From positions 1-10,840 of the forward strand of contig SYAK01000568.1 in assembly GCA_005788935.1 (NCBI GenBank): 10,840 nt of DNA, in the 5' to 3' direction. The stretch's first letter is position 1. Each line of letters begins with the position of its first letter. Source of the stretch: Pseudomonadota bacterium. GTDB taxonomy: Bacteria; Myxococcota; UBA9042; PHBI01. The position numbers were made by a program, and so were the translations under genes. The notes below the pieces were generated by a model. That model was given only the letters and a program-made list of their open reading frames with translations. It was not told the origin of the DNA and made no database searches. This document shows positions 682 through 10,350 of this stretch, in pieces.

Positions 682-1704
682 ATGTCCGTGGACTTGAACA
701 TGCATGCTCGGCCTGCAACCGGCCTCATCGGGGTCGCGCTGATGGCCCTCGTGTCCGCCTGCGGTGGTGAGGCCTCGACCTCGCCGCCTCCCGAAGATGT
801 GGCGGCCCTCGCGGACAGCGGCGCCGCCGCCGCCGATGGGGTCTCCGCACCCGAGAGCGATGCGGTCAACGAGCCAGACGCCGAAGCGCATGACGCGGCG
901 GCGGGCGCCGACCTCAGCGATGTCGTGGCGGAAGACGTGGCCTCGAGCCCGGCTGAGGCCCTGTGTGCCGCGACTGGCGGCGCGTGGGAGGCGGGCGCGT
1001 GCGACTGCCGCCAGACCCCCGAGGCGACGCGGCTCGAGGCGTCGTTCGACGCGGAGCTTGGCTGCCTGCCGGACGCAGCGCGGCTGTGCGCCGACACGGG
1101 TGGCGTTTGGGAGGACGAGGCCTGCGCCTGCGCCCAGGACGGCGCGACGCTGTTCTTCGAGTTCGACCAGCGGCGGGGATGCGGCTTCCCGGACGACGCG
1201 GCGCTGACAGCTGACATCCTGTCAGAGAACCTGCTCGCGCTCGTGACGCGCTACGCGAGCGCGGCGCAGCGGGTCTGGCTCATCGACAGCGCCGGGGTCT
1301 TCATGCACATCGAGCCCTTCGACGACCCGGCCGAGCTCGCGGCGCGCCTCGCCCCGAACTGGGCGTCGGTCAGCACGTCCGCGGGGGCTTGCAGTGGCGC
1401 GCTCGTCCGCGAGGCGCTCCCCGAGGTCGCGTGCGAGAACGACGCGGGCATGGCCCCGACTGGCTGCTTTCTCGTGACGACGCGCGGCGACTGGGACCGC
1501 GTCAGCATGCTGATGAAGGCGGCGGTCGAGTACGATTTCGCGGACTGGGAGGCGGCCGAGATCGCACGCGCCGAGGCGGACGAGCGCCAGATCCTGAAGG
1601 TCCATGTCGCCTCGAGCCATCGGGTGACGCTTGCCTTCCGCCGCCTCTCGGGGACCTGGGTCCTCGTCGCGATTGACCTCGCCCGCTACGGTTGCAGCGC
1701 GTGA
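682..1704 (+). CDS. Lipoprotein with two Cys-rich CxxTGGxW repeats and unknown C-terminal domain
   Basis: This is a 340-residue exported lipoprotein of unknown function. A signal peptide ends in the lipobox L-V-S-A-C, making Cys27 the likely lipidated residue. Residues 28-92 form an Ala/Asp/Glu-rich linker typical of surface lipoproteins in this kind of genome. Two tandem modules follow, at residues 94-128 and 135-167. Each has the pattern L-C-A-x-T-G-G-x-W-x4-A-C-x-C, a 16-18 residue spacer and G-C, giving four cysteines per module. The rest (about 170-340) has no motif I recognise; it contains further cysteines and ends in a strand-rich segment with W-V-L-V-A-I-D-L and a final Y-G-C-S-A. 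The start at 682 is supported by an AAAAGGA site. The gene sits 38 bp after the phosphoesterase gene and 98 bp before the propeller-cytochrome gene. The cysteines may form disulfides in the periplasm or at the surface; there is no CxxCH, so haem is not indicated. Confidence 0.85.
   Translation: MSVDLNMHARPATGLIGVALMALVSACGGEASTSPPPEDVAALADSGAAAADGVSAPESDAVNEPDAEAHDAAAGADLSDVVAEDVASSPAEALCAATGGAWEAGACDCRQTPEATRLEASFDAELGCLPDAARLCADTGGVWEDEACACAQDGATLFFEFDQRRGCGFPDDAALTADILSENLLALVTRYASAAQRVWLIDSAGVFMHIEPFDDPAELAARLAPNWASVSTSAGACSGALVREALPEVACENDAGMAPTGCFLVTTRGDWDRVSMLMKAAVEYDFADWEAAEIARAEADERQILKVHVASSHRVTLAFRRLSGTWVLVAIDLARYGCSA
964..1182 (+). repeat. Two-copy Cys-rich protein module (CxxTGGxW...CxC...GC)
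   Basis: Copy 1 runs from the Cys codon at 964 to that at 1063. Copy 2 runs from 1087 to 1180. In both, cysteines 1, 2 and 3 fall at relative positions 1, 13 and 15. The fourth is at 34 in copy 1 and 32 in copy 2, a two-residue length difference in the spacer. The T-G-G-x-W core and the final G-C are identical in both copies. Confidence 0.8.
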
Positions 1705-1729
1705 CCCGGGCCGCCTCGCGTGGCCCGGG
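1705..1729 (+). terminator. Perfect inverted repeat after the lipoprotein stop; possible terminator or attenuating hairpin
   Basis: CCCGGGCC at 1705-1712 and GGCCCGGG at 1722-1729 form a perfect 8-bp all-G/C stem with a 9-base loop, starting right after the TGA at 1702-1704. No T-run follows, so it is not a textbook intrinsic terminator. It could act as a processing or 3'-protecting hairpin, or as a partial terminator that lowers expression of the downstream genes. Confidence 0.4.
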
Positions 1730-1802
1730 AGCTGCGCGCGGCCTGTTGCGGTGGGTGGTCTGTCGCTTGACGTGCGCGCCCCGCGGATGCGAAGTTGACG
1801 CC

Positions 1803-3725
1803 ATGCGAGTGGCAGCGCGGGGTGCGTCGACCCGGACAGACGAGCGGAGCGAACAGCGAGCGGGCGCCCGCAGGTACCGCACGCCAGGCTTGCCGCCCTG
1901 GACGTTGTGGCTCGCGGCGTGTGTGACGTTCGCGGGCTGCGAGCCGACGGGGGCCCTCGGTCCGGACTCCGACGCCACGTCGGTCGACGCCCTCGACGCG
2001 CCAGGCTCGGCGCTGGATGCGGCCGACGCGCTGGCGGCCGACTCCGGCGCTCCGGGCGACCTGGAGGCGTCGGAGGCCGACCTCGACGACGCGCCGGACG
2101 CCGCACCTGAGGCGGGGCCCGACGTCGACCTGCCCGACGTCGACCTGCCCGACGTCGACCTGGCAGACGCCGATGGAGACGCCGGTGGACCGGTCGCGCC
2201 GCCTCCGCTCGGTGAGGTCGAGGTCTTCACGACCGAGATGTCCGAGGGACGCGCAGACGCGCTCCTCTGGGTCGGGTACGGGCGGAGCGAGGCGTGGCTT
2301 GAGCGCGACGGTTCGTCGCTGAGGCTTGTCCGGAGCGGGATCGCGTCCAACCTGGCGTGGCCCGAGGGCGTCACGGTCGCGGGGCCGCTCGTCGCGGCGG
2401 CGGCCAGCGTCCGGGACGTCATCGTCGGCGGTGCGTTCGGCCTGATGGTGGTGCGTGACGGCGTCGTCATCGCGAGTCCGCTCGCGGACCGCTTCGCCAA
2501 CGATCCGGTGCGTGCGGTGCTGCGGGTCGGCGGCGAGGCCGGCGCGTCCGACGCCCTCTGGATCTCCGCCGACTCCGGGCTGTGGCGGTGGCGGGACGGG
2601 GTCCGGGCCCCGGTCACCGCCGAGGGTCTGCGACTCGCGCCAGGTCTCCTCGCGGGGCCAGCGCCGATCGCCACGGCGGCCGCCTCCAGCGTCCCCGCGG
2701 TCTGGCTTGCGGCCGACGGTGGCGTGCTCGCCCTGCACGGGTTTCCGGACGCGCCGGCGCTCTCCCTCGAGCGGCCGGATCTCCGGACGCCGCAGGTCAC
2801 CGCCCTCGGGACGACCCGCGGTGGCCTCGTCCTTGCCCTGCACGACGGGCTGGACGGGTCGGGTCAGCTGCGCGTGCGGACGCAGACCGCTGGGCGCGGC
2901 ACGTGGCTTGCCTCCGGACGCGAGCTGGCCGACGTCGGTGGCCTCGCGTCCCTGGCGTCCCACGCTGAGGCCCCCGTCGCGTGGCTGCGCACGGTCGCTG
3001 GAGCGCTGCTGTTGGTTCGCGAGGACGCGAGCCTCGCCGCTGCCTCGGGACCGCCCGAACTCGCCGAGATCTCGGCGTTCGCGGCGATCCCCGACGGGCG
3101 CCTGCTGGTCGCGACCCCCGCCGGGGTTCGGGCTGTCGCCGCTGGCAACGCCGTGTCCCTCGGCGATGTCCCGCCCGACGGAGAGCTCCGCTCGGCGGTT
3201 GTCATCGCCATTCGCCCGACCGACCTCGCCGCGGTCTCCCGCATCACCGCGACGCTGACCTCGGCCGATGGCGCGTCGACCGATCTCGCCGTGCGACCGG
3301 CCGAAGCGGGCGCGCTCTGGCCGACGATCGCGCTCGACCCATTGGCGCTCCCGAACGACCGGTACACGCTCGCGGTCGTCGTTACGTGGCAGGCTGGCGT
3401 GTCGCGGACCGTGTCGGCCGAGCTCGCGGTCAGCTTGCCGGCGTGGACGGACGTCGGTCCGGCCCTGACGCGCGTCTGCGGCGGATGTCACGCCACCGGG
3501 AACCTCCTTCGGCGGGTGGCGCTCGATGTGCCGGACGTGGTCGCCGCGCGTGTGGACGAGGTCCTGTGCCGCGCTGACCTCCATCAGACGCCCCGCTCGA
3601 GCGTCCCGGAGTGCACGAACCTCGGGACGAACCTGCCCGCCTCCATGCCGCCCGGGAACGACAGACTGTCGCCAGAGGTCCTCGCGACCCTGCGGGCCTG
3701 GCGCGACGCGGGCTTCCGACCCTGA
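1803..3725 (+). CDS. Lipoprotein with seven propeller-like repeats and a C-terminal cytochrome c domain
   Basis: This is a 640-residue exported protein that probably carries electrons at the cell envelope. A long basic N-region precedes a hydrophobic stretch ending T-F-A-G-C (Cys46, likely lipidated). Residues 47-130 form an Asp/Ala/Pro linker with three DVDLP units. From about 150 to 455, seven loose repeats of the form (L/V)-W-(V/I/L)...G...(R/H)-D-G suggest a beta-propeller; the first carries Trp156. Residues about 465-545 look like an Ig/fibronectin-type sandwich. The C-terminus has C559-G-G-C-H563, the CxxCH haem c site, and Met615 in S-M-P-P-G-N as the probable distal ligand, followed by an amphipathic helix with L-R-A-W-R-D-A-G, as in class I cytochromes c. 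The start is the first ATG; its Shine-Dalgarno is weak and the 29-residue N-region is long, so a start nearer the hydrophobic segment (TTG at 1890) is possible. It is the first of four closely spaced genes. Confidence 0.86.
   Translation: MRVAARGASTRTDERSEQRAGARRYRTPGLPPWTLWLAACVTFAGCEPTGALGPDSDATSVDALDAPGSALDAADALAADSGAPGDLEASEADLDDAPDAAPEAGPDVDLPDVDLPDVDLADADGDAGGPVAPPPLGEVEVFTTEMSEGRADALLWVGYGRSEAWLERDGSSLRLVRSGIASNLAWPEGVTVAGPLVAAAASVRDVIVGGAFGLMVVRDGVVIASPLADRFANDPVRAVLRVGGEAGASDALWISADSGLWRWRDGVRAPVTAEGLRLAPGLLAGPAPIATAAASSVPAVWLAADGGVLALHGFPDAPALSLERPDLRTPQVTALGTTRGGLVLALHDGLDGSGQLRVRTQTAGRGTWLASGRELADVGGLASLASHAEAPVAWLRTVAGALLLVREDASLAAASGPPELAEISAFAAIPDGRLLVATPAGVRAVAAGNAVSLGDVPPDGELRSAVVIAIRPTDLAAVSRITATLTSADGASTDLAVRPAEAGALWPTIALDPLALPNDRYTLAVVVTWQAGVSRTVSAELAVSLPAWTDVGPALTRVCGGCHATGNLLRRVALDVPDVVAARVDEVLCRADLHQTPRSSVPECTNLGTNLPASMPPGNDRLSPEVLATLRAWRDAGFRP
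2118..2162 (+). repeat. 15-bp in-frame tandem repeat (DVDLP linker)
   Basis: Two identical 15-bp units (GACGTCGACCTGCCC) at 2121-2135 and 2136-2150 are followed by a third that matches for its first 12 bases (2151-2162). The three bases before the array (CCC) match the unit end. Each unit encodes D-V-D-L-P. Copy-number change would lengthen or shorten the lipoprotein linker without breaking the frame. Confidence 0.9.
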
Positions 3726-3734
3726 CCGACTCGC

Positions 3735-3740
3735 GAGGAG
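3735..3740 (+). promoter_or_regulatory. Ribosome binding site for the DUF1549-like gene
   Basis: GAGGAG lies four bases before the ATG at 3745, in the 19-bp gap after the cytochrome gene. It fixes the start at this ATG, directly before a Sec signal peptide, although the frame is open back to 3526 inside the preceding gene. Confidence 0.7.
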
Positions 3741-3744
3741 ACGC

Positions 3745-5373
3745 ATGCCAAGCCCCATTCCATCGCGCAGCCTCCTCGCCGCCCTGGCGACGTTCGGGAT
3801 GGTCATCTCCACGAGCGCAGGCCGGGCCGCGGAGCCGCAGGCCGAGCCCGCGTGGGACGACCCGCTCTGCGTCGCCCCCGAGGATCGGATGCCCCCGACG
3901 CGCTGGCTGCGCTCGGCGAGCCTCGATGTCCGTGGACAGCTCCCGACGCCCGAGGAGACTGCGGCGGTGGTCGACGCAGAGGCGACGGGCGAGGCGGGAG
4001 CTGCCGAGGCGGCCGTCGTGCGCCTGATCGACGAGTGGCTCGCCTCGGAGGCCTTCGCCGATCGCTTCGTCCGTCTGCATCGCGAGCTCCTCTGGAACAA
4101 CATCTCGAATCTGACACCTTACGGGGTCTCCGCGTCCCTCAGCCTCGGCAACAACACGACCACCGCGGCCTACCGCAGCGGGGCGATTGCCCGTCGCCTG
4201 CGCGGCGCCGATGTCCGCTGCCTGAACGAGCCCGCGCAGTTCGGAGATGACGGCGCTGTCCTCGCGACGCTGCAGGACGACGGGTCGATGCGGGAGGGGT
4301 GGGTCGAGGTGCGGCCCTACTGGGCCCCCGATACGACCATCCGGGTCTGCGCCTTTGACGCGCAGGCGGCCGCCCTGTCCGCCAACGGCGTCTCGTGCAA
4401 CAGCAACCTCGGGACCGCGCAACGCGACTGCGGTTGTGGCCCGAACCTGAACTGGTGTGCGACGTCGACCCAGGCCCGCACGCTCATGCAGGCCTTCGCC
4501 GAGGACGTCGATCGGCGCGTTCGCGACATCATCCGCGACGACCGCTCGTATCTCGACCTCTTCACGACCTCGCGCGGGTACGTCAATGGGCCGATCGTCC
4601 ACTTCCTGCGCCACCAGACCCAGATCACGCGGATGCGCATCCAGCCGCTCTTCGTCGACCTCGAGCGCCTGCCAGCGCTCGAATGGCACCAGACCGACAC
4701 GTGGGTGCCAGTCGAGCTCGGGCCCCACCACGCGGGCGTCCTGACCTCGCCCGCCTTCCTCATCCGGTTCCAGACCGCGCGGGCCCGCGCCAACCGCTTC
4801 TACACGGCGTTCCTGTGCAGACCCTTCAACCCCTCCGCGGATGGTGTGGCGGTCGAGGACATCGACGAGCCAGACTTGCAGGAGCGGGCTGGCTGCAACT
4901 ACTGCCACGCCGAGCTTGAGCCCGCGGCGGCCCACTGGGGGCGCTGGGGCGAGCGCGGCACGAGCTTCCTCGACCCGGCGGCCTTCCCGGCTTACGACCC
5001 GCAGTGCGAGAGCTGCGCACGCTCGAGCCTGGCCTGTCCCACCCGCTGCACGCAAAACTACGTGACCCGCCCGCTCTCGGACAAGGAGGCCGAGTGGACG
5101 GGGTGGTTGCTGGGCTACACCTTCCGCCGCGAGGAGCACATGCTCGCGGTCGAGGAGGGGCCCGACTATCTCGCGCTCACGGAGGCGGTCGAAGGGCGCC
5201 TGCCGCGATGCGTGGCGCAAACCGCGCTCGGGAAGCTGCTTGGTGCGGCCGAGGACGTGACCAATTCCACCTGGATCGACCTGCTCGCGCAGACCTTCGT
5301 GGCCTCGGACTTCCGATACCGCGAGGTGGTGCGTGACATCCTGCTCGACGAGACCTACCGGAGGGCCCGATGA
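3745..5373 (+). CDS. Sec-exported DUF1549-like cytochrome protein with CNYCH haem motif and many cysteines
   Basis: This is a 542-residue exported protein. A Sec signal peptide (hydrophobic L-L-A-A-L-A-T-F-G-M-V-I, then S-A-G-R-A-A) probably ends near residue 28. Residues 48-90 have R-W-L-R-S-A-S-L-D-V-R-G-Q-L-P-T-P-E-E and then W-L-A-S-E-A-F-A-D-R-F, the hallmark of DUF1549, the domain of planctomycete cytochrome-associated proteins. A central Cys-rich part holds C202, C218 and C229-G-C231-G-P-N-L-N-W-C238. C384-N-Y-C387-H388 is a CxxCH haem c site in the context R-A-G-CNYCH-A-E-L-E-P, as in DUF1588/DUF1592-type proteins. A further cluster is C421-x2-C424-x6-C431-x3-C435. The C-terminus (F-V-A-S-D-F-R-Y-R-E-V-V-R-D-I-L) resembles DUF1585. 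There are 15 cysteines in all. Substrate and reaction are unknown. The stop overlaps the next start by 4 bp (ATGA), implying translational coupling. Confidence 0.82.
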   Translation: MPSPIPSRSLLAALATFGMVISTSAGRAAEPQAEPAWDDPLCVAPEDRMPPTRWLRSASLDVRGQLPTPEETAAVVDAEATGEAGAAEAAVVRLIDEWLASEAFADRFVRLHRELLWNNISNLTPYGVSASLSLGNNTTTAAYRSGAIARRLRGADVRCLNEPAQFGDDGAVLATLQDDGSMREGWVEVRPYWAPDTTIRVCAFDAQAAALSANGVSCNSNLGTAQRDCGCGPNLNWCATSTQARTLMQAFAEDVDRRVRDIIRDDRSYLDLFTTSRGYVNGPIVHFLRHQTQITRMRIQPLFVDLERLPALEWHQTDTWVPVELGPHHAGVLTSPAFLIRFQTARARANRFYTAFLCRPFNPSADGVAVEDIDEPDLQERAGCNYCHAELEPAAAHWGRWGERGTSFLDPAAFPAYDPQCESCARSSLACPTRCTQNYVTRPLSDKEAEWTGWLLGYTFRREEHMLAVEEGPDYLALTEAVEGRLPRCVAQTALGKLLGAAEDVTNSTWIDLLAQTFVASDFRYREVVRDILLDETYRRAR

Positions 5374-6302
5374 GACGCCTGTTGGTTCGAACCGGGCGCG
5401 GCACCCCGCTCGCGCTCGCTGTGTGGGCCGCAACCGCCGCGGGATGTGAGGCTCCGCTTCCCGCCTCGGAGCGACCCTCGGAGCCCCTCGCCGAGCCCGA
5501 GGTGGCCGCCGAGCCCGAGGTGGCCGCCGAGCCCGATGTGGCCGCGGAGCCCGATGTGGCCGCGGAGCCCGACGTGGCCGTGGAGCCCGGTGACACCGAG
5601 GCAGGCCAGCGCGCGGATGCTGAAACCCCGCAACCCGATACCTCGAGCGACCTCCCGGACCTTGCCGGCGAGTCGGCGGATGCCGTCTGGCAGCACCCGG
5701 GGAGCACGGGACTGCAGGTCGGGACGTCGGAGGAGGCTGCGCTCGCCGAGCCGGTCCCGCCTGCACCGCCTGGAACGCGCCCGCGTCGCAGGGTCGACAT
5801 CCCGATGCTCGACCGAGCCTTCCGGGATGCGCTCGGCGGTATCACCTGGACGGTCACGAGCGGCGCGACGACGACCGAGCAGTGGACCGTCCTCGCGGAC
5901 ACCCTCGGCATGCCGAACTTCATCGACACGACCATCGAGGACCTCGACGCGACCCCGCTCTTCGCGAAGTTCCTCGGGGATGGCGCGCGCAAGGCCTGCG
6001 CCGACCGGGTGAAGGCCGACAAGGCGGCCATCGCTGCGGGCGTGTCGTCGCAGTCGCCTCCCGTTCTCTTTGGCGCCCTCGGCCTGCAGGACACCCCCGA
6101 GACGGCACCCGCCGCCACGGACGCCCAGCTCTCGGCCCTCCTCCTGCGCTTCCATGGGCGCCGCCTCGCGCCCGACGCGCCCGGATTCGACGCCTGGCGC
6201 TGGCTGCTTGCGAGCTCCTACCAGCTCACCGCGAGCATGGAGACGGCCTGGCAGGCGGTCTGTGTTGCGCTGCTCACGCATCCCGACTTCTACACCCTCT
6301 GA
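5370..6302 (+). CDS. Lipoprotein with AEP(E/D)VA repeat linker and a small helical C-terminal domain
   Basis: This is a 310-residue exported protein. The N-terminus is basic, then hydrophobic, ending in A-T-A-A-G-C with Cys26 as the probable lipidated residue. The start codon overlaps the previous stop (ATGA). Residues 27-135 are a Pro/Glu/Asp/Ala linker with five AEP(E/D)VA units. Residues about 138-310 form the only folded part. Its last 60 residues (L-S-A-L-L-L-R-F-H-G-R-R-L-A-P-D, then A-W-Q-A-V-C-V-A-L-L-T-H-P-D-F-Y-T-L) resemble the helical segment of DUF1592/DUF1595-type proteins that ends in a 'SP-x-F-L-Y' motif. There is no CxxCH. Its place between the DUF1549-like and DUF1501 genes suggests a membrane-anchored partner of those two proteins. 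The family link is weak and the role is inferred from context. Confidence 0.8.
   Translation: MRRLLVRTGRGTPLALAVWAATAAGCEAPLPASERPSEPLAEPEVAAEPEVAAEPDVAAEPDVAAEPDVAVEPGDTEAGQRADAETPQPDTSSDLPDLAGESADAVWQHPGSTGLQVGTSEEAALAEPVPPAPPGTRPRRRVDIPMLDRAFRDALGGITWTVTSGATTTEQWTVLADTLGMPNFIDTTIEDLDATPLFAKFLGDGARKACADRVKADKAAIAAGVSSQSPPVLFGALGLQDTPETAPAATDAQLSALLLRFHGRRLAPDAPGFDAWRWLLASSYQLTASMETAWQAVCVALLTHPDFYTL
5490..5579 (+). repeat. 18-bp in-frame tandem repeat, five units (AEP[E/D]VA linker)
   Basis: Five consecutive 18-bp units encode A-E-P-E-V-A twice and then A-E-P-D-V-A three times, with a degenerate half unit (V-E-P-G) after them. Most differences are single-base: GAG versus GAT or GAC, and GCC versus GCG. 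The array lies just after the lipidation site and forms a spacer between membrane and folded domain. Confidence 0.92.
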
Positions 6303-6318
6303 TCCAGGCGGTGAACGC

Positions 6319-7764
6319 ATGACCACACACGTCAAGCACGGCCTCTCCCGCCGCGCCTTCTTGCAGGGCGGCCTCGCTGTCGGTGCGGCGGCTGGGGTCT
6401 TCGGCGCCGCCGGGCTGCTGAGCGGCCTCGGTCGGGCAGCTTCGGGTGGCGTCGAAGGCATCCCCGCACGGCATTACGTCTTCTGCTACTTCGGCGGCGG
6501 CTGGGACATTCTGCTGGGGCTCGACCCGCGCGACCCCGCCGTCTTCACCAACGGCAATGCGTCCACGACCCTCATTCAGCCCGGCTACGAGCTCGCGACG
6601 ACCCTGAGCGCCCCCGTGATCGACCCGCTCGGCGACGGGACCATGCGCCTCGGGCCCTTCATGGGCGAGCTCGCGCGTCACGCGTCGCGCCTCTGCGTCG
6701 TGCGCGGGCTCAACATGGACACGCTGACGCACGAGGTCGGGCGGCGTCGCTTTCTGACAGGGCGCCCGCCAAGCGGTCTCATCGCCCGCGGTTCGTCGGC
6801 GGACACGTGGCTCACGAGCGTCGTGGGCGGGGACGAGGCCATCCCGAACCTGACGATCGGGGTCGAGTCGTTCAATTTCGATCGCCCCACGTTCGCGACC
6901 GCCCTCGCAGCCCGCGGGCTCGACGATCTCCTGCGGGTGCTCGGCCCGGCGGCGGGCTCGCTTCCCACGTCCGTCGAGGAGCGCATCGACGCCCTCATCG
7001 CGCGGGCTTCGGGCTGCCCCGAGGGTGCCCGCTCGCCGCTCGTCAGGCGAGCCGAGGAGGCGCGCAGCGACGCCCGCGCCATGGTTCAGCAGAGGCTCGA
7101 CGCGCGCTTCGACCTGCGGTCCAACACGCCTGCCATGCAGGCCGTCCGGACGCGCTTCGGCCTCAGCACCTCGGCGACCTCACTCGGCTCGGCCAACGCG
7201 CGCGCCGCCCGCGCGGGCCTCGCGCTGACGGGCGGCATCTCGCGCGCGGGCAGTTTTGCCCCGACGGCCTCGCGCGACACGCACTTCGACAACTGGCAGG
7301 TCGATCACGGGCCTCGCCTCGCCGACGGATACACGGCGGTCGCGCGCCTGATGGACCATCTGCTCGCGACGCCGTACCCGGACGGCTCGGGCGACTCCTG
7401 GCTCGACCGGACGGTCATCGTCGGCTTCTCGGAGTTCTCGCGCACGCCCCTGCTGAACGCTCAGGGCGGGCGCGACCACTGGCTTCTGAACGCCTGCTTC
7501 CTCGCGGGCGGCAACATCGCGGGGGGCCGGGTCGTCGGAGCCTCCTCGAACCGCGGCATGAACCCCGTGCCCGTGGACCTCGTCACGGGGCGGGCCTTCA
7601 CGCAGGACGCGGCGGGCATGTTCGCGGCCGAGGAAATCCCCGGCGTTCGTGAGATTATCCGGCCTGAGCACATTCTTCAGGCCCTCTACCACGAAGTCGG
7701 TCTCCGCAACGAGATGACCGGGCCGGAGCTCCGCGTCAAGCCGCTGATGGCCATCTTCCGCTGA
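6319..7764 (+). CDS. Tat-exported DUF1501 family protein
   Basis: This is a 481-residue protein exported folded by the Tat system. L-S10-R11-R12-A-F-L is a clear twin-arginine motif, followed by a Gly/Ala-rich hydrophobic segment (residues 16-40). The mature part begins R-H-Y-V-F-C-Y-F-G-G-G-W-D, the usual DUF1501 opening. Later hallmarks are D320-T-H322-F-D324-N-W with H330-G, S-E372-F-S-R375-T-P, and G-G-R-D386-H387-W388. DUF1501 is related to the alkaline phosphatase/sulfatase superfamily, and these Asp/His residues are candidates for a metal site, but no reaction is established. In planctomycetes DUF1501 genes stand next to DUF1549-type cytochrome genes, the same pairing as here. Length is normal and the frame intact. 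It starts 16 bp after the preceding lipoprotein gene, with an AGGCGGTGA stretch before the ATG, and is the last gene of the run. Confidence 0.92.
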   Translation: MTTHVKHGLSRRAFLQGGLAVGAAAGVFGAAGLLSGLGRAASGGVEGIPARHYVFCYFGGGWDILLGLDPRDPAVFTNGNASTTLIQPGYELATTLSAPVIDPLGDGTMRLGPFMGELARHASRLCVVRGLNMDTLTHEVGRRRFLTGRPPSGLIARGSSADTWLTSVVGGDEAIPNLTIGVESFNFDRPTFATALAARGLDDLLRVLGPAAGSLPTSVEERIDALIARASGCPEGARSPLVRRAEEARSDARAMVQQRLDARFDLRSNTPAMQAVRTRFGLSTSATSLGSANARAARAGLALTGGISRAGSFAPTASRDTHFDNWQVDHGPRLADGYTAVARLMDHLLATPYPDGSGDSWLDRTVIVGFSEFSRTPLLNAQGGRDHWLLNACFLAGGNIAGGRVVGASSNRGMNPVPVDLVTGRAFTQDAAGMFAAEEIPGVREIIRPEHILQALYHEVGLRNEMTGPELRVKPLMAIFR

Positions 7765-7773
7765 GCGGGTGAC

Positions 7774-7799
7774 AGCGGGCCGCCCGCGCGGCGGTCGCT
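7774..7799. terminator. Imperfect hairpin between convergent genes; possible bidirectional terminator
   Basis: AGCGGGCCGCC (7774-7784) can pair with GGCGGTCGCT (7790-7799) around a CGCGC loop, with one bulged G and one G-T pair. It sits in the 34-bp gap between the DUF1501 stop and the hydrolase stop on the other strand, and touches the latter stop codon. There is no T-run on either strand, so termination activity is uncertain. Confidence 0.35.
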
Positions 7800-10255
7800 C
7801 AGCGCGCGGTCCCGTTCACGATGGGGGCGGTCTCGCGGCAGGGTTGACCTCGCAGTCCCGGACAGGCCGGCAGCTCGGGCGGGAAGGCGAGGGCCTCCCC
7901 GGTCGGGGTGCCGTCGAGGCGCGTCAGCACGAGGGCCGACGGGGTCACCGAGCCCACGTGGACCGTGTGGGTGGCGGCGGTCCCGCCTGTCGGTTCGTCG
8001 AACTGCCAGGTGCCGTGATTGCGGCCCGGCGACGCCACCGTCAGGCGCAGCCTGGAGCCCGGTCGCAGGACATGCGCGACCGACGGGATCGGGACCCGCG
8101 CGAGCGCCACCTCGCCAGGGACCGGCGTAACGAAATGCGATTCTTGCCAGGTGTACTGGAGTGCGTTTCCGTCGGTCAGCTCCGCGTCGACGACCCCGTG
8201 ACCCGCGCGCAAGAGCCCGTTTTGCAGCAGGACCTCCTTTCCGTCGGACCGCAGCTCGGTCAGCGTCACCTGCAGGTGGATGTCGCTCGCCGTGCTCGCG
8301 ACCCAGAGCTCGACCCAACCAGCGCCCCCCAGGATCATGGCGTCTTCGAGTGCTGGTGTCTCCCACGCAAGCGCATGGCCTTCCGGGTGGCGGGTCCAGT
8401 CGAGGTCCCACATGCGATCCATCGTCGAGTAGCCGCGTGGCCCGAAGAAGGTCCGCGCGCCAGCGTCCGGGTCGTGGTCGAACCGCAGCGTGCCAGCGCC
8501 GACCCGCGCGCCCGACGGCCCCGCGTCCTCGACGAGGGTCCCCTCGGGCGTCAGCAGGTGACGTGTCGTGCGTGCGTCGGGGGCTGGCCAGCGCGGCAGG
8601 TCGAGCGCGAACCGCTCCTTTGGCGCACCGTCCTGCACGCCCTCGCCACCGCCGCCGCTCTCCCACAGGACGCGCACCTCCGGCTCGGCCTTCCAGGCGG
8701 CCAGCGCGCCGGCGTAGTCGTCGTCGGCGAAGGCTGCGAAGCGGTCGGGCTCGAGCGGGACGGCGTCCGAGCCCCAGGCCGCGCTGAGCTGTTCGGCCCC
8801 GAGCGTCCGCATCCACTCGGGCATCCGCGGGACACGACGGCCGACGAAGAGCTCGAGGAATTCGTGCCAGCGCGCGAAGAGCAGCGGGCTGTAGCCGTCG
8901 GTGTGGCGGCCGTTGTAGAGCATGAAGCGGCGCGCTGGCGCGGACGCGAAGCGATGCAGCATCGCGGTGAAGTGCGGGCCGGTCTGTTCGTCCTGGAAAC
9001 CGCCCGAGAGGTACACCGGCACGCGGATGTCGGCGGCGAAGCGCTTGACGCTCCGCGCGTAGGCTGTCTCCGGGTAGAAGGCCAGGTCCTGGAAGATCAC
9101 CCCGAAGTCGAGGTTCTGGCCGCGCAGCGCCTGGTGCGACTCGCAGATGTCGTCGCCCCAGGCGATGCGGCGCTCGGTCCAGCTCTGTCCAAGGGACGAC
9201 GCCTCGCGGTCCCGCTCCTCGAGCCACTGCCGCGTGAAGCCGGCGTTGTAGATGCCGCCGGGCCGCAGCAGCTCCCACGGGTCCGACAGCACCGACAAGG
9301 GCGCAATGGCCGCGAGGCTCGGCGGGTTGGCCGCCGCCGCATAGAGCTGAGTGATGCCGGGATAGGACAGGCCGACCATGCCGACCTGGCCATGAAGCAC
9401 CCACGACTGGCGCGCGACGACCTCGATGACGTCGTAGGCGTCCGCCTGCTGGGCGGGCGAGAAGATGTCGAAGACGCCGCCCGAGCACCCGGAGCCGCGC
9501 ATGTTGACGCCGACGGACGCATAGCCGAGCAGCGTCGCGAGCCGCGCACCGGGGTCCGGGTCGTCCGGGTTCGACGGGTCGTAGCCCGAGTAGGCGATGA
9601 CCGTCGGCCAGGGCCCGTCGCCCCAGAGGTACGGGTCGGGGAAGCGCACCATCGCCGAGAGCAGCGTCCCGTCGCGCGTCCGGATGTAGCCGAGGCCGAG
9701 CTGCGGGTCCTCTGCGTGTCCCGTCAGGCCGTAGTGCACGCCCGCGAGCGGCTGGTTTTCGTAAGCCTCCTCGGGGGCTGGGACGTCCGAGACCGCCAGG
9801 ACGCGGAAGGGGCCGACAGCGGTCGGTGGGGTCGTCGCGTCGTCGCGAATGACCCAGCCGTCGCCAGGCGGGACCGTGGTCGCGCCCTTGACGAAGCCCC
9901 CCGTGACCCCGCCCTCGAGCGAGCTTCCAGCCCCCGAGGAGAGGGTCGCGTGGGTCGCGCCGACATAGGCGAAATGGGCCTGTCCGAGGGCATCGGCGAC
10001 GACCGTCAGGCGGGCGGTGCCAGTCGCGTCGTGCAGCGTGTAGGGTCGCCCCGGGACCCCGCCCGTGACGGTCGCGATTTCAACCCCGGGGCGGACCTCG
10101 AAGGCGCCTGCGGCCGTGCCGACGAGGGCCGGGTGGGGCGCCTCCGTCGATGGCGCGGGGCCCGAGGCGTCATCGCAGGCGATGGCGAGGCTGGTGAGAA
10201 GCGGCGAGAGCGACAGCAGGCAGGCGCGACGAGACATCCTCACCCGATAGCGCAT
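7799..10255 (-). CDS. Exported CocE/NonD family serine hydrolase with PepX C-terminal domain, probable lipoprotein
   Basis: This is an 818-residue alpha/beta hydrolase of the cocaine-esterase/X-prolyl dipeptidyl peptidase type, which cleaves acyl ester or amide bonds; its substrate is unknown. The N-terminus is basic (three Arg, then S-R-R), with a hydrophobic stretch ending L-A-I-A-C27, a plausible though imperfect lipobox. Residues about 35-140 look like a small beta domain (F-E-V-R-P-G-V-E start). The hydrolase domain begins near 187 (Y-I-R-T-R-D-G-T). It contains Y-S-G-Y-D-P-S-N-P, G-V-N-M-R-G-S-G-C-S-G-G and G-L-S297-Y-P-G with the nucleophile Ser297. Asp422 in G-G-F-Q-D and His451 in N-G-R-H complete a likely triad. 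The last 220 residues match the PepX_C jelly-roll. The frame is open to 10318, but the ATG at 10255 has a GAGG five bases upstream; a second ATG at 10237 is badly spaced. It converges on the DUF1501 gene. Confidence 0.9.
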   Translation of the reverse strand: MRYRVRMSRRACLLSLSPLLTSLAIACDDASGPAPSTEAPHPALVGTAAGAFEVRPGVEIATVTGGVPGRPYTLHDATGTARLTVVADALGQAHFAYVGATHATLSSGAGSSLEGGVTGGFVKGATTVPPGDGWVIRDDATTPPTAVGPFRVLAVSDVPAPEEAYENQPLAGVHYGLTGHAEDPQLGLGYIRTRDGTLLSAMVRFPDPYLWGDGPWPTVIAYSGYDPSNPDDPDPGARLATLLGYASVGVNMRGSGCSGGVFDIFSPAQQADAYDVIEVVARQSWVLHGQVGMVGLSYPGITQLYAAAANPPSLAAIAPLSVLSDPWELLRPGGIYNAGFTRQWLEERDREASSLGQSWTERRIAWGDDICESHQALRGQNLDFGVIFQDLAFYPETAYARSVKRFAADIRVPVYLSGGFQDEQTGPHFTAMLHRFASAPARRFMLYNGRHTDGYSPLLFARWHEFLELFVGRRVPRMPEWMRTLGAEQLSAAWGSDAVPLEPDRFAAFADDDYAGALAAWKAEPEVRVLWESGGGGEGVQDGAPKERFALDLPRWPAPDARTTRHLLTPEGTLVEDAGPSGARVGAGTLRFDHDPDAGARTFFGPRGYSTMDRMWDLDWTRHPEGHALAWETPALEDAMILGGAGWVELWVASTASDIHLQVTLTELRSDGKEVLLQNGLLRAGHGVVDAELTDGNALQYTWQESHFVTPVPGEVALARVPIPSVAHVLRPGSRLRLTVASPGRNHGTWQFDEPTGGTAATHTVHVGSVTPSALVLTRLDGTPTGEALAFPPELPACPGLRGQPCRETAPIVNGTAR

Positions 10256-10260
10256 CAGCG

Positions 10261-10264
10261 CCTC
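10261..10264 (-). promoter_or_regulatory. Ribosome binding site for the CocE-type hydrolase
   Basis: Read on the minus strand, GAGG is followed by CGCTG and the ATG at 10255. The spacing of five bases favours this start over the ATG at 10237, where a GAGG is directly adjacent to the start codon. Confidence 0.5.
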
Positions 10265-10276
10265 GGCGTCACGTGC

Positions 10277-10305
10277 TTGGCGCTTGCGGACGGGCGCGGT
10301 AGAGT
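10277..10305 (+). promoter_or_regulatory. Candidate sigma-70-type promoter for the acyl-CoA dehydrogenase gene
   Basis: TTGGCG (10277-10282) and TAGAGT (10300-10305) are 17 bases apart, and each matches the consensus at four of six positions. They lie in the 105-bp region between two divergent start codons, 55 bases before the ATG at 10361. I saw no comparably good pair for the minus-strand gene. Confidence 0.38.
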
Positions 10306-10350
10306 GCCGGGCGTCCACGAAGCACCCGAGCGAACACCCCCGAACCCAGC

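What the first reader, a model, noticed from the sequence alone, without database searches (positions are those of the whole stretch)
1803..7764. Four-gene exported redox module: propeller-cytochrome lipoprotein, DUF1549-like haem protein, lipoprotein partner, Tat DUF1501
All four genes are on one strand with gaps of 19, -4 and 16 bp, and every product has an export signal: two lipoprotein, one Sec and one Tat. Two carry a CxxCH site. DUF1549 and DUF1501 are known neighbours, but their biochemical role is open. The addition of a lipid-anchored propeller with its own cytochrome domain and a second anchored partner suggests a complete envelope complex. I infer oxidation or modification of an extracellular substrate, with electrons leaving through the cytochrome.
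Basis: partly seen in the sequence, partly recalled or inferred. Interest (0 to 1): 0.7.

Follow-up and report, generated by a model that had tools for sequence, protein, structure and literature searches.

The report
Conserved surface cytochrome–DUF1501 gene module
Four neighbouring bacterial genes encode exported proteins, two of them with haem-binding motifs, and the same set recurs in many relatives, so it is probably a real but uncharacterised cell-surface electron-handling machine.

Summary
Four + strand genes lie at 1803-3725, 3745-5373, 5370-6302 and 6319-7764 (gaps 19, -4, 16 bp); all have predicted export signals, and A and B carry one CxxCH each. Of 80 fetched loci with a relative of B, 50 (49 secure) have the order A-B-C-D and 6 have A-C-D-B; DUF1501 accompanies B in all 76 loci with room; B and C share a 4-bp overlap in 55 of 70.

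A is a lipoprotein with a propeller, an Ig-like domain and a one-haem cytochrome c. B is a cysteine-rich PSCyt2/PSD-type protein, CxxCH kept in 81 of 81. C is a lipoprotein family without a Pfam or NCBIfam name. D is a Tat DUF1501 protein with a predicted alkaline-phosphatase/sulfatase fold.

It is probably not "complete": an FG-GAP-type giant lipoprotein gene flanks 32 of 45 A-containing loci with room, though not this window. I see an expanded variant of the PSCyt2-PSD1/DUF1501 pair. A complex that moves electrons while acting on an extracellular, perhaps glycan, substrate is the best explanation but is inferred. The passages read give no function.

The parts
1803..3725 (+). Gene A: lipoprotein with beta-propeller, Ig-like domain and C-terminal single-haem cytochrome c domain
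   Evidence: Translation; AlphaFold model pLDDT 81.0; fold matches; profile matches
2211..3164 (+). A: propeller, residues 137-454 (29 strands, so about 7 blades)
3198..3431 (+). A: Ig-like domain, residues 466-543
   Evidence: Model; Big_7 at E up to 1 in 10 of 43 aligned sequences
3444..3722 (+). A: cytochrome c domain, residues 548-640; CGGCH at 3477-3491, MPP (likely Met ligand) at 3645-3653
   Evidence: C559, C562, H563 and M615 invariant in 43 aligned sequences; Cytochrome_CBB3 at E up to 1 in 39 of 43; the window's own protein had no Pfam cytochrome hit
3745..5373 (+). Gene B: Sec-type export, Cys-rich PSCyt2/PSD-type protein; CNYCH at 4894-4908
   Evidence: CxxCH 81 of 81
5370..6302 (+). 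Gene C: lipoprotein of a family without a Pfam or NCBIfam name; conserved core about residues 137-310 (5778-6299)
6319..7764 (+). Gene D: Tat-exported DUF1501 protein, predicted alkaline-phosphatase superfamily fold
   Evidence: Pfam DUF1501 64 bits (cut-off 27); model pLDDT 88.5; fold
6730..6732 (+). D: His138, first residue of the helix that follows a core strand (the place of the nucleophile in sulfatases, from recall)
   Evidence: Invariant in 41 of 41; 22 of 25 wider DUF1501 rows; DSSP helix 138-147
7276..7284 (+). D: Asp320-x-His322, likely metal ligands
   Evidence: Invariant in 41 of 41 and 25 of 25 wider DUF1501 rows (MAFFT alignment)
7429..7479 (+). D: Ser371-Glu372-Phe373-x-Arg375 ... 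Gly384-Arg-Asp386-His387, likely metal/substrate residues
   Evidence: 41 of 41; in 25 wider rows Glu or Asp at 372 in 22, Arg375 in 25, Asp386 in 22, His387 in 24

Best explanation
A conserved envelope complex that couples chemistry on an extracellular, perhaps glycan, substrate to electron transfer. Shown: the four genes form a recurring unit with the domains listed. Inferred: D (alkaline-phosphatase/sulfatase fold with a conserved acid/His set) and B (Cys-rich PSCyt2/PSD protein with one haem-c motif) make the catalytic core; C anchors or assembles it; A binds the substrate or complex through its propeller and passes electrons between B and the cell's c-type cytochrome pool through its cbb3/c6-like haem domain. 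Direction of electron flow (oxidising the substrate, or delivering electrons to activate it) is open; flow away from the substrate is slightly preferred.
Against: No haem, complex, activity or substrate was tested. 18 of 80 loci show no A beside B although more than 1 kb is held upstream (L025 has A on the other strand, L034 one gene away), so A is not always needed. B has 13 further conserved cysteines, so its CxxCH might serve a disulfide or metal site. Hydrolase folds such as D's need no electrons. The BT4663 match is loose (TM 0.34, rmsd 20) and VIA-align ranks many WD40 and other propellers alike, so it does not show glycan binding. D's Foldseek matches are also loose (only 2 at E up to 0.001, TM about 0.3, rmsd above 18 for these); the support comes from VIA-align. 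hhalign of D against PF00884 proteins was not significant (E 0.21 and 0.15).
Confidence: 0.4

Rival explanations
1. D is a metal-dependent hydrolase or transferase (sulfo-, phospho- or similar ester chemistry) on envelope or foreign glycans, and the haem proteins B and A only sense redox state or oxygen and gate it.
For: Alkaline-phosphatase fold; D320, H322, D/E372, D386, H387 largely kept across DUF1501; two PF00884 genes are also hit weakly by the DUF1501 profile inside their PF00884 stretch (E 1.6e-4 and 9.6e-4, below the cut-off).
Against: The nucleophile place seems to hold His rather than Cys, Ser or Thr (inferred from strand and helix order, not superposition); D accompanies B in all 76 loci with room, more than a mere sensor would need.
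Confidence: 0.25
2. The proteins form a structural or assembly platform for a surface layer or exopolysaccharide, with PSCyt-type domains acting as disulfide-rich scaffolds and the FG-GAP protein as adhesin.
For: Two lipoproteins in the window, a third in many relatives; many conserved Cys in B; FG-GAP-type giant lipoprotein beside 32 of 45 A-containing loci with room; DUF1501 near chitin synthase in other bacteria (PMC5122149, passages).
Against: A haem motif and a following Met-Pro are kept in 60 of 61 A-domain hits even where the motif drifted to CX3CH or CX4CH, which suggests working haem.
Confidence: 0.2
3. A dissimilatory or stress-related electron conduit (to or from metals, humics or oxygen) with no organic substrate.
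For: The cytochrome domain matches the Pfam family PccH (PF22297) at E up to 1 in 18 of 43 sequences and the one-haem cytochrome 4rlr by profile (E 4.8e-5).
Against: Only two mono-haem motifs and no porin or multihaem partner in the window; an alkaline-phosphatase-fold partner is unexplained.
Confidence: 0.1

Closest known systems
PSCyt2-PSD1 (DUF1549-DUF1553) plus DUF1501 gene pair, found side by side twice in G001, the genome of locus L061 (Paraliomyxa miuraensis) (L128, L129)
   Same: A PSCyt2-type gene with a DUF1501 gene; L129 also has a cytochrome protein gene right after DUF1501
   Different: Here the PSCyt2 match is partial and just below its cut-off, PSD1 is barely detectable, a CxxCH and 13 other conserved Cys are present, lipoprotein gene C sits between B and D, and the cytochrome is on a propeller lipoprotein
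Planctomycete-specific cytochrome/PSD genes of Planctomycetes and Verrucomicrobia (PMC5615132, PMC2754498; passages read)
   Same: PSCyt and PSD-type segments; conserved neighbours of unknown families; role called unknown or only suggested as redox
   Different: Here split over several genes, in loci whose named hosts are mostly Myxococcota lineages
DUF1800-DUF1501 operons (PMC5122149, passages)
   Same: DUF1501 partner, Tat motif
   Different: Partner here is the PSCyt2/PSD type (4 of 34 B-alignment sequences match DUF1800 weakly) and two lipoproteins are added
Cbp2D of Cellvibrio japonicus (PMC8981238, passages)
   Same: Secreted modular protein with a small c-type cytochrome and a DUF1587 domain
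   Different: Single protein with CBM and YceI-like domain; DUF1501 not mentioned in the passages read
Hybrid two-component sensors such as BT4663 (4a2l, 4a2m)
   Same: Propeller plus Ig-like arrangement (loose fold match; profile match)
   Different: A has one propeller and a cytochrome; no kinase domain seen

Membership tests
DUF1501 (PF07394) | Pfam score over curated cut-off | tested here: met
   64.0 bits against 27; 41 of 41 aligned sequences match
DUF1501 (PF07394) | Twin-arginine export motif | tested here: met
   R11-R12 invariant in 41 of 41; TAT_signal model 19.0 bits, under its cut-off of 22.7
PSCyt2/DUF1549 (PF07583) | Score over curated cut-off | tested here: inconclusive
   29.6 against 29.8 bits; 34 of 34 aligned sequences match at E up to 1, best 1e-7
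PSCyt2/DUF1549 (PF07583) | Whole domain (209 positions) | tested here: not met
   Only positions 16-81 aligned
PSCyt2-PSD1 + DUF1501 unit | PSCyt2-type gene close to a DUF1501 gene | tested here: met
   Window (one gene, C, between) and all 76 loci with room
PSCyt2-PSD1 + DUF1501 unit | PSD1 (DUF1553) domain over cut-off in the same protein | tested here: not met
   16.9 against 28.5 bits, 37 residues
Class I c-type cytochrome (gene A domain) | CxxCH with downstream Met | tested here: met
   CGGCH 559-563, M615; invariant in alignment A2
Class I c-type cytochrome (gene A domain) | Pfam Cytochrome_CBB3 hit in the protein itself | tested here: not met
   None for the window protein; 39 of 43 in the alignment at E up to 1
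Class I c-type cytochrome (gene A domain) | Covalent haem | not testable with these tools
   Needs protein
Beta-propeller (gene A) | Closed array of four-stranded blades | tested here: met
Alkaline phosphatase superfamily (gene D) | Fold | tested here: met
Alkaline phosphatase superfamily (gene D) | Cys, Ser or Thr nucleophile | tested here: inconclusive
   Position judged from strand and helix order holds His138; no superposed coordinates at hand
Sulfatase (PF00884) | Sequence profile relationship | tested here: inconclusive
   PF00884 not among the 15 families hit by the 41 sequences at E up to 1; hhalign E 0.21 and 0.15 with small sets; weak DUF1501-profile hits in two PF00884 genes

The most novel reading that the evidence does not exclude
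A five-protein surface machine of Myxococcota-type bacteria in which an alkaline-phosphatase-fold enzyme with His at the nucleophile place is wired, through a Cys-rich haem protein and a propeller-borne cytochrome, to the respiratory chain: a new class of redox-coupled glycan-processing enzyme held at the surface with an integrin-like FG-GAP partner.
Probability: 0.15. Interest if true: 0.8.

Novelty: new variant of a known kind. Interest (0 to 1): 0.5.

Why it matters
PSCyt, PSD and DUF1501 domains can be very numerous (one planctomycete genome is reported to hold 41 copies each of DUF1549 and DUF1553; PMC2754498, passage), yet the listings and passages I saw give no tested biochemical role for them (searches). 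A compact four-gene unit with a defined cytochrome, a defined lipoprotein partner and a fold assignment for DUF1501 turns this open question into a testable one: express four genes, look for haem, metal and a complex.

Tried and rejected
The first genome-contig scan with the single protein B found no relative; an alignment solved it. tblastn of D in plasmids: no match. The idea that C is a cut-off piece of B was tested with hhalign and not supported (E 0.18); PSD5 matched 1 of 37 C sequences at E 0.16. D against PF00884 proteins by hhalign: not significant in two tries (E 0.21; E 0.15 with 10 sequences). Solved-structure sequence search: nothing for B, nothing for D alone, and one chance-level hit for the D alignment (E 0.1). 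Promoter and terminator scan of 1400-8000: no sigma-70-like site, and the 3 terminator-like sites lie inside genes, so transcription is not settled. PADLOC and PHROGs were not searched. No gene trees were built; only distance-matrix correlations were, which also reflect shared ancestry.

Limits of counts. The cytochrome profile was made from 41 rows of the same set (40 loci and the window), so recovery of those rows is by construction; the other 20 of its 61 hits are not. One row, L022, was a wrong sequence and its hit is weak (19 bits), so 49 of the 50 A-B-C-D loci are secure. 'Room' for A means only that more than 1 kb is held before B. The FG-GAP-type profile was seeded with 21 sequences of the same loci, 18 of them among the 29 divergent cases; A starts there were approximated; FG-GAP was checked with Pfam in four members only. 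A first neighbour count (24 loci) missed the cases lying inside my exclusion zone. A first look at conservation in other DUF1501 proteins kept only sequences that match a motif of the very residues in question and so was circular; I replaced it, which uses no motif (25 rows from 27 loci; L122 and L127 look like the same gene; some of the 25 belong to this module itself).
Full report
What is there. I call them A (1803-3725), B (3745-5373), C (5370-6302) and D (6319-7764). Downstream, on the - strand, is a CocE/NonD-type hydrolase (7799-10318), then the start of an acyl-CoA dehydrogenase on the + strand. Upstream, 98 bp before A, ends another + strand lipoprotein-like gene without a Pfam or NCBIfam hit (682-1704).

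Conservation. A protein search with B gave 633 proteins at E up to 1e-3 among the 7996 candidates scored (120 listed). An alignment of 34 sequences (A1) was used to scan one genome per species (84,980 by the tool's description): 112 stretches encode a relative and the best 80 were fetched. By my count of the titles, 35 of 80 name Myxococcota lineages, 11 Deltaproteobacteria, 18 only a proteobacterium, 15 only a bacterium and 1 Rhodobacterales; one is a named strain, Paraliomyxa miuraensis (L061), the rest are MAGs. In a sample of 282 genomes from the phylum of G002, 68 have a match at E up to 1e-20; at most five candidates per genome were scored, one genome has five matches, and some matches cover only the later part of the profile. 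The scan used two conserved peptide patterns, so absence elsewhere is not shown.

Gene order. Among the 80 loci: A-B-C-D 50, B-C-D with no A beside B 17, A-C-D-B 6, and 7 cut by contig ends (B-C-D 2, A-B 2, A-B-C 1, B alone 1, D-B 1). The B-alone locus also shows no A, which makes 18. DUF1501 lies within 2.5 kb behind B, with C between, or just before B, in all 76 loci with room. Of the 17, L025 has A on the other strand and L034 has it one gene away. L022 counts as A on a weak hit only (19 bits). The 4-bp overlap of B stop and C start is present in 55 of 70 loci with C behind B. Pairwise distances of the parts correlate (52 sequences, the window included; B-D 0.855, B-C 0.826, C-D 0.773, cytochrome-B 0.622, cytochrome-D 0.562; 0 of 999 permutations each). 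B, A and C homologs P0006, P0125 and P0131 are listed with the same longest contig, 11556 bases, which suggests one contig but was not read.

Gene B. Of 34 aligned sequences, 34 match PSCyt2, 31 PSD2, 27 PSD1, 21 PSD4, 12 PSCyt3 and 4 DUF1800 at E up to 1, so B is a composite of planctomycete-type domains rather than plain DUF1549. In 81 aligned sequences both Cys of the CxxCH and five other Cys never change, and eight more are kept in 68-80. A haem, disulfides and a metal site are all possible for this set.

Gene C. Lipoprotein with a repeat linker and a conserved C-terminal core. No Pfam or NCBIfam family; 24 proteins at E up to 1e-3 among the 7999 candidates scored. It is not detectably a piece of B.

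A further partner. A profile of a 1,200-1,500-residue lipoprotein with FG-GAP repeats (Pfam FG-GAP E 2.8e-42 to 2.1e-52 in the four members checked) finds it divergent beside A in 29 loci and downstream of D in 3, out of 45 A-containing loci with room (2 more have it elsewhere, 11 lack it; 8 others had no room). Among the 27 loci without A beside B, the A-C-D-B ones included, it is divergent in 3, downstream in 1, elsewhere in 3, absent in 17, with no room in 3. It is not in the window.

Compared with the known. In the genome of L061 (handle G001), PSCyt2-PSD1 genes adjoin DUF1501 genes at two places (L128, L129). The window's unit is an expanded variant of this. Papers PMC5615132, PMC2754498, PMC5122149, PMC8981238, PMC4452313, PMC7789669 and PMC11495043 were seen as passages only, other hits as listings. 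No passage gives a tested function for these domains. Full-text searches for DUF1501, DUF1549, DUF1553, DUF1800, DUF1552, DUF1585, DUF1587, DUF1588, DUF1592, DUF1595 and PSCyt names returned 0 to 10 papers each, and a six-word context search returned one; supplements and most subscription journals were not searched.

Verdict. Real, conserved and uncharacterised. The complex and electron-transfer reading is the best supported but unproved.

Noticed in passing
L001-L080, e.g. L013:4260-8249:-: Divergent FG-GAP-type giant lipoprotein gene beside A or B in many relatives, in tandem pairs in L002, L024, L026 and L042
   Followed up: partly
window 682-1704: Lipoprotein-like gene with two Cys-rich repeats of the TGGxWExxxCxC type, same strand, 98 bp before A; no Pfam or NCBIfam hit
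   Followed up: no
window 5489-5589 and 2117-2173: Tandem repeats of 18 bp (5.6 copies) and 15 bp (3.8 copies) encode acidic linkers after the lipidated Cys of C and A; L006 has a GEQHA repeat at the same place in C
   Followed up: partly
L059, L061, L072, L073, L074, L080: Permuted order A-C-D-B with CX4CH in the cytochrome domain
   Followed up: partly
L014:7889-9883:+: A protein with two tandem cytochrome domains
   Followed up: no
L129:2799-4763:-: Protein with Cytochrom_C and CCP_MauG-like matches right after a DUF1501 gene
   Followed up: no
window 7799-10318: CocE/NonD-family hydrolase gene convergent with D, 34 bp apart
   Followed up: no
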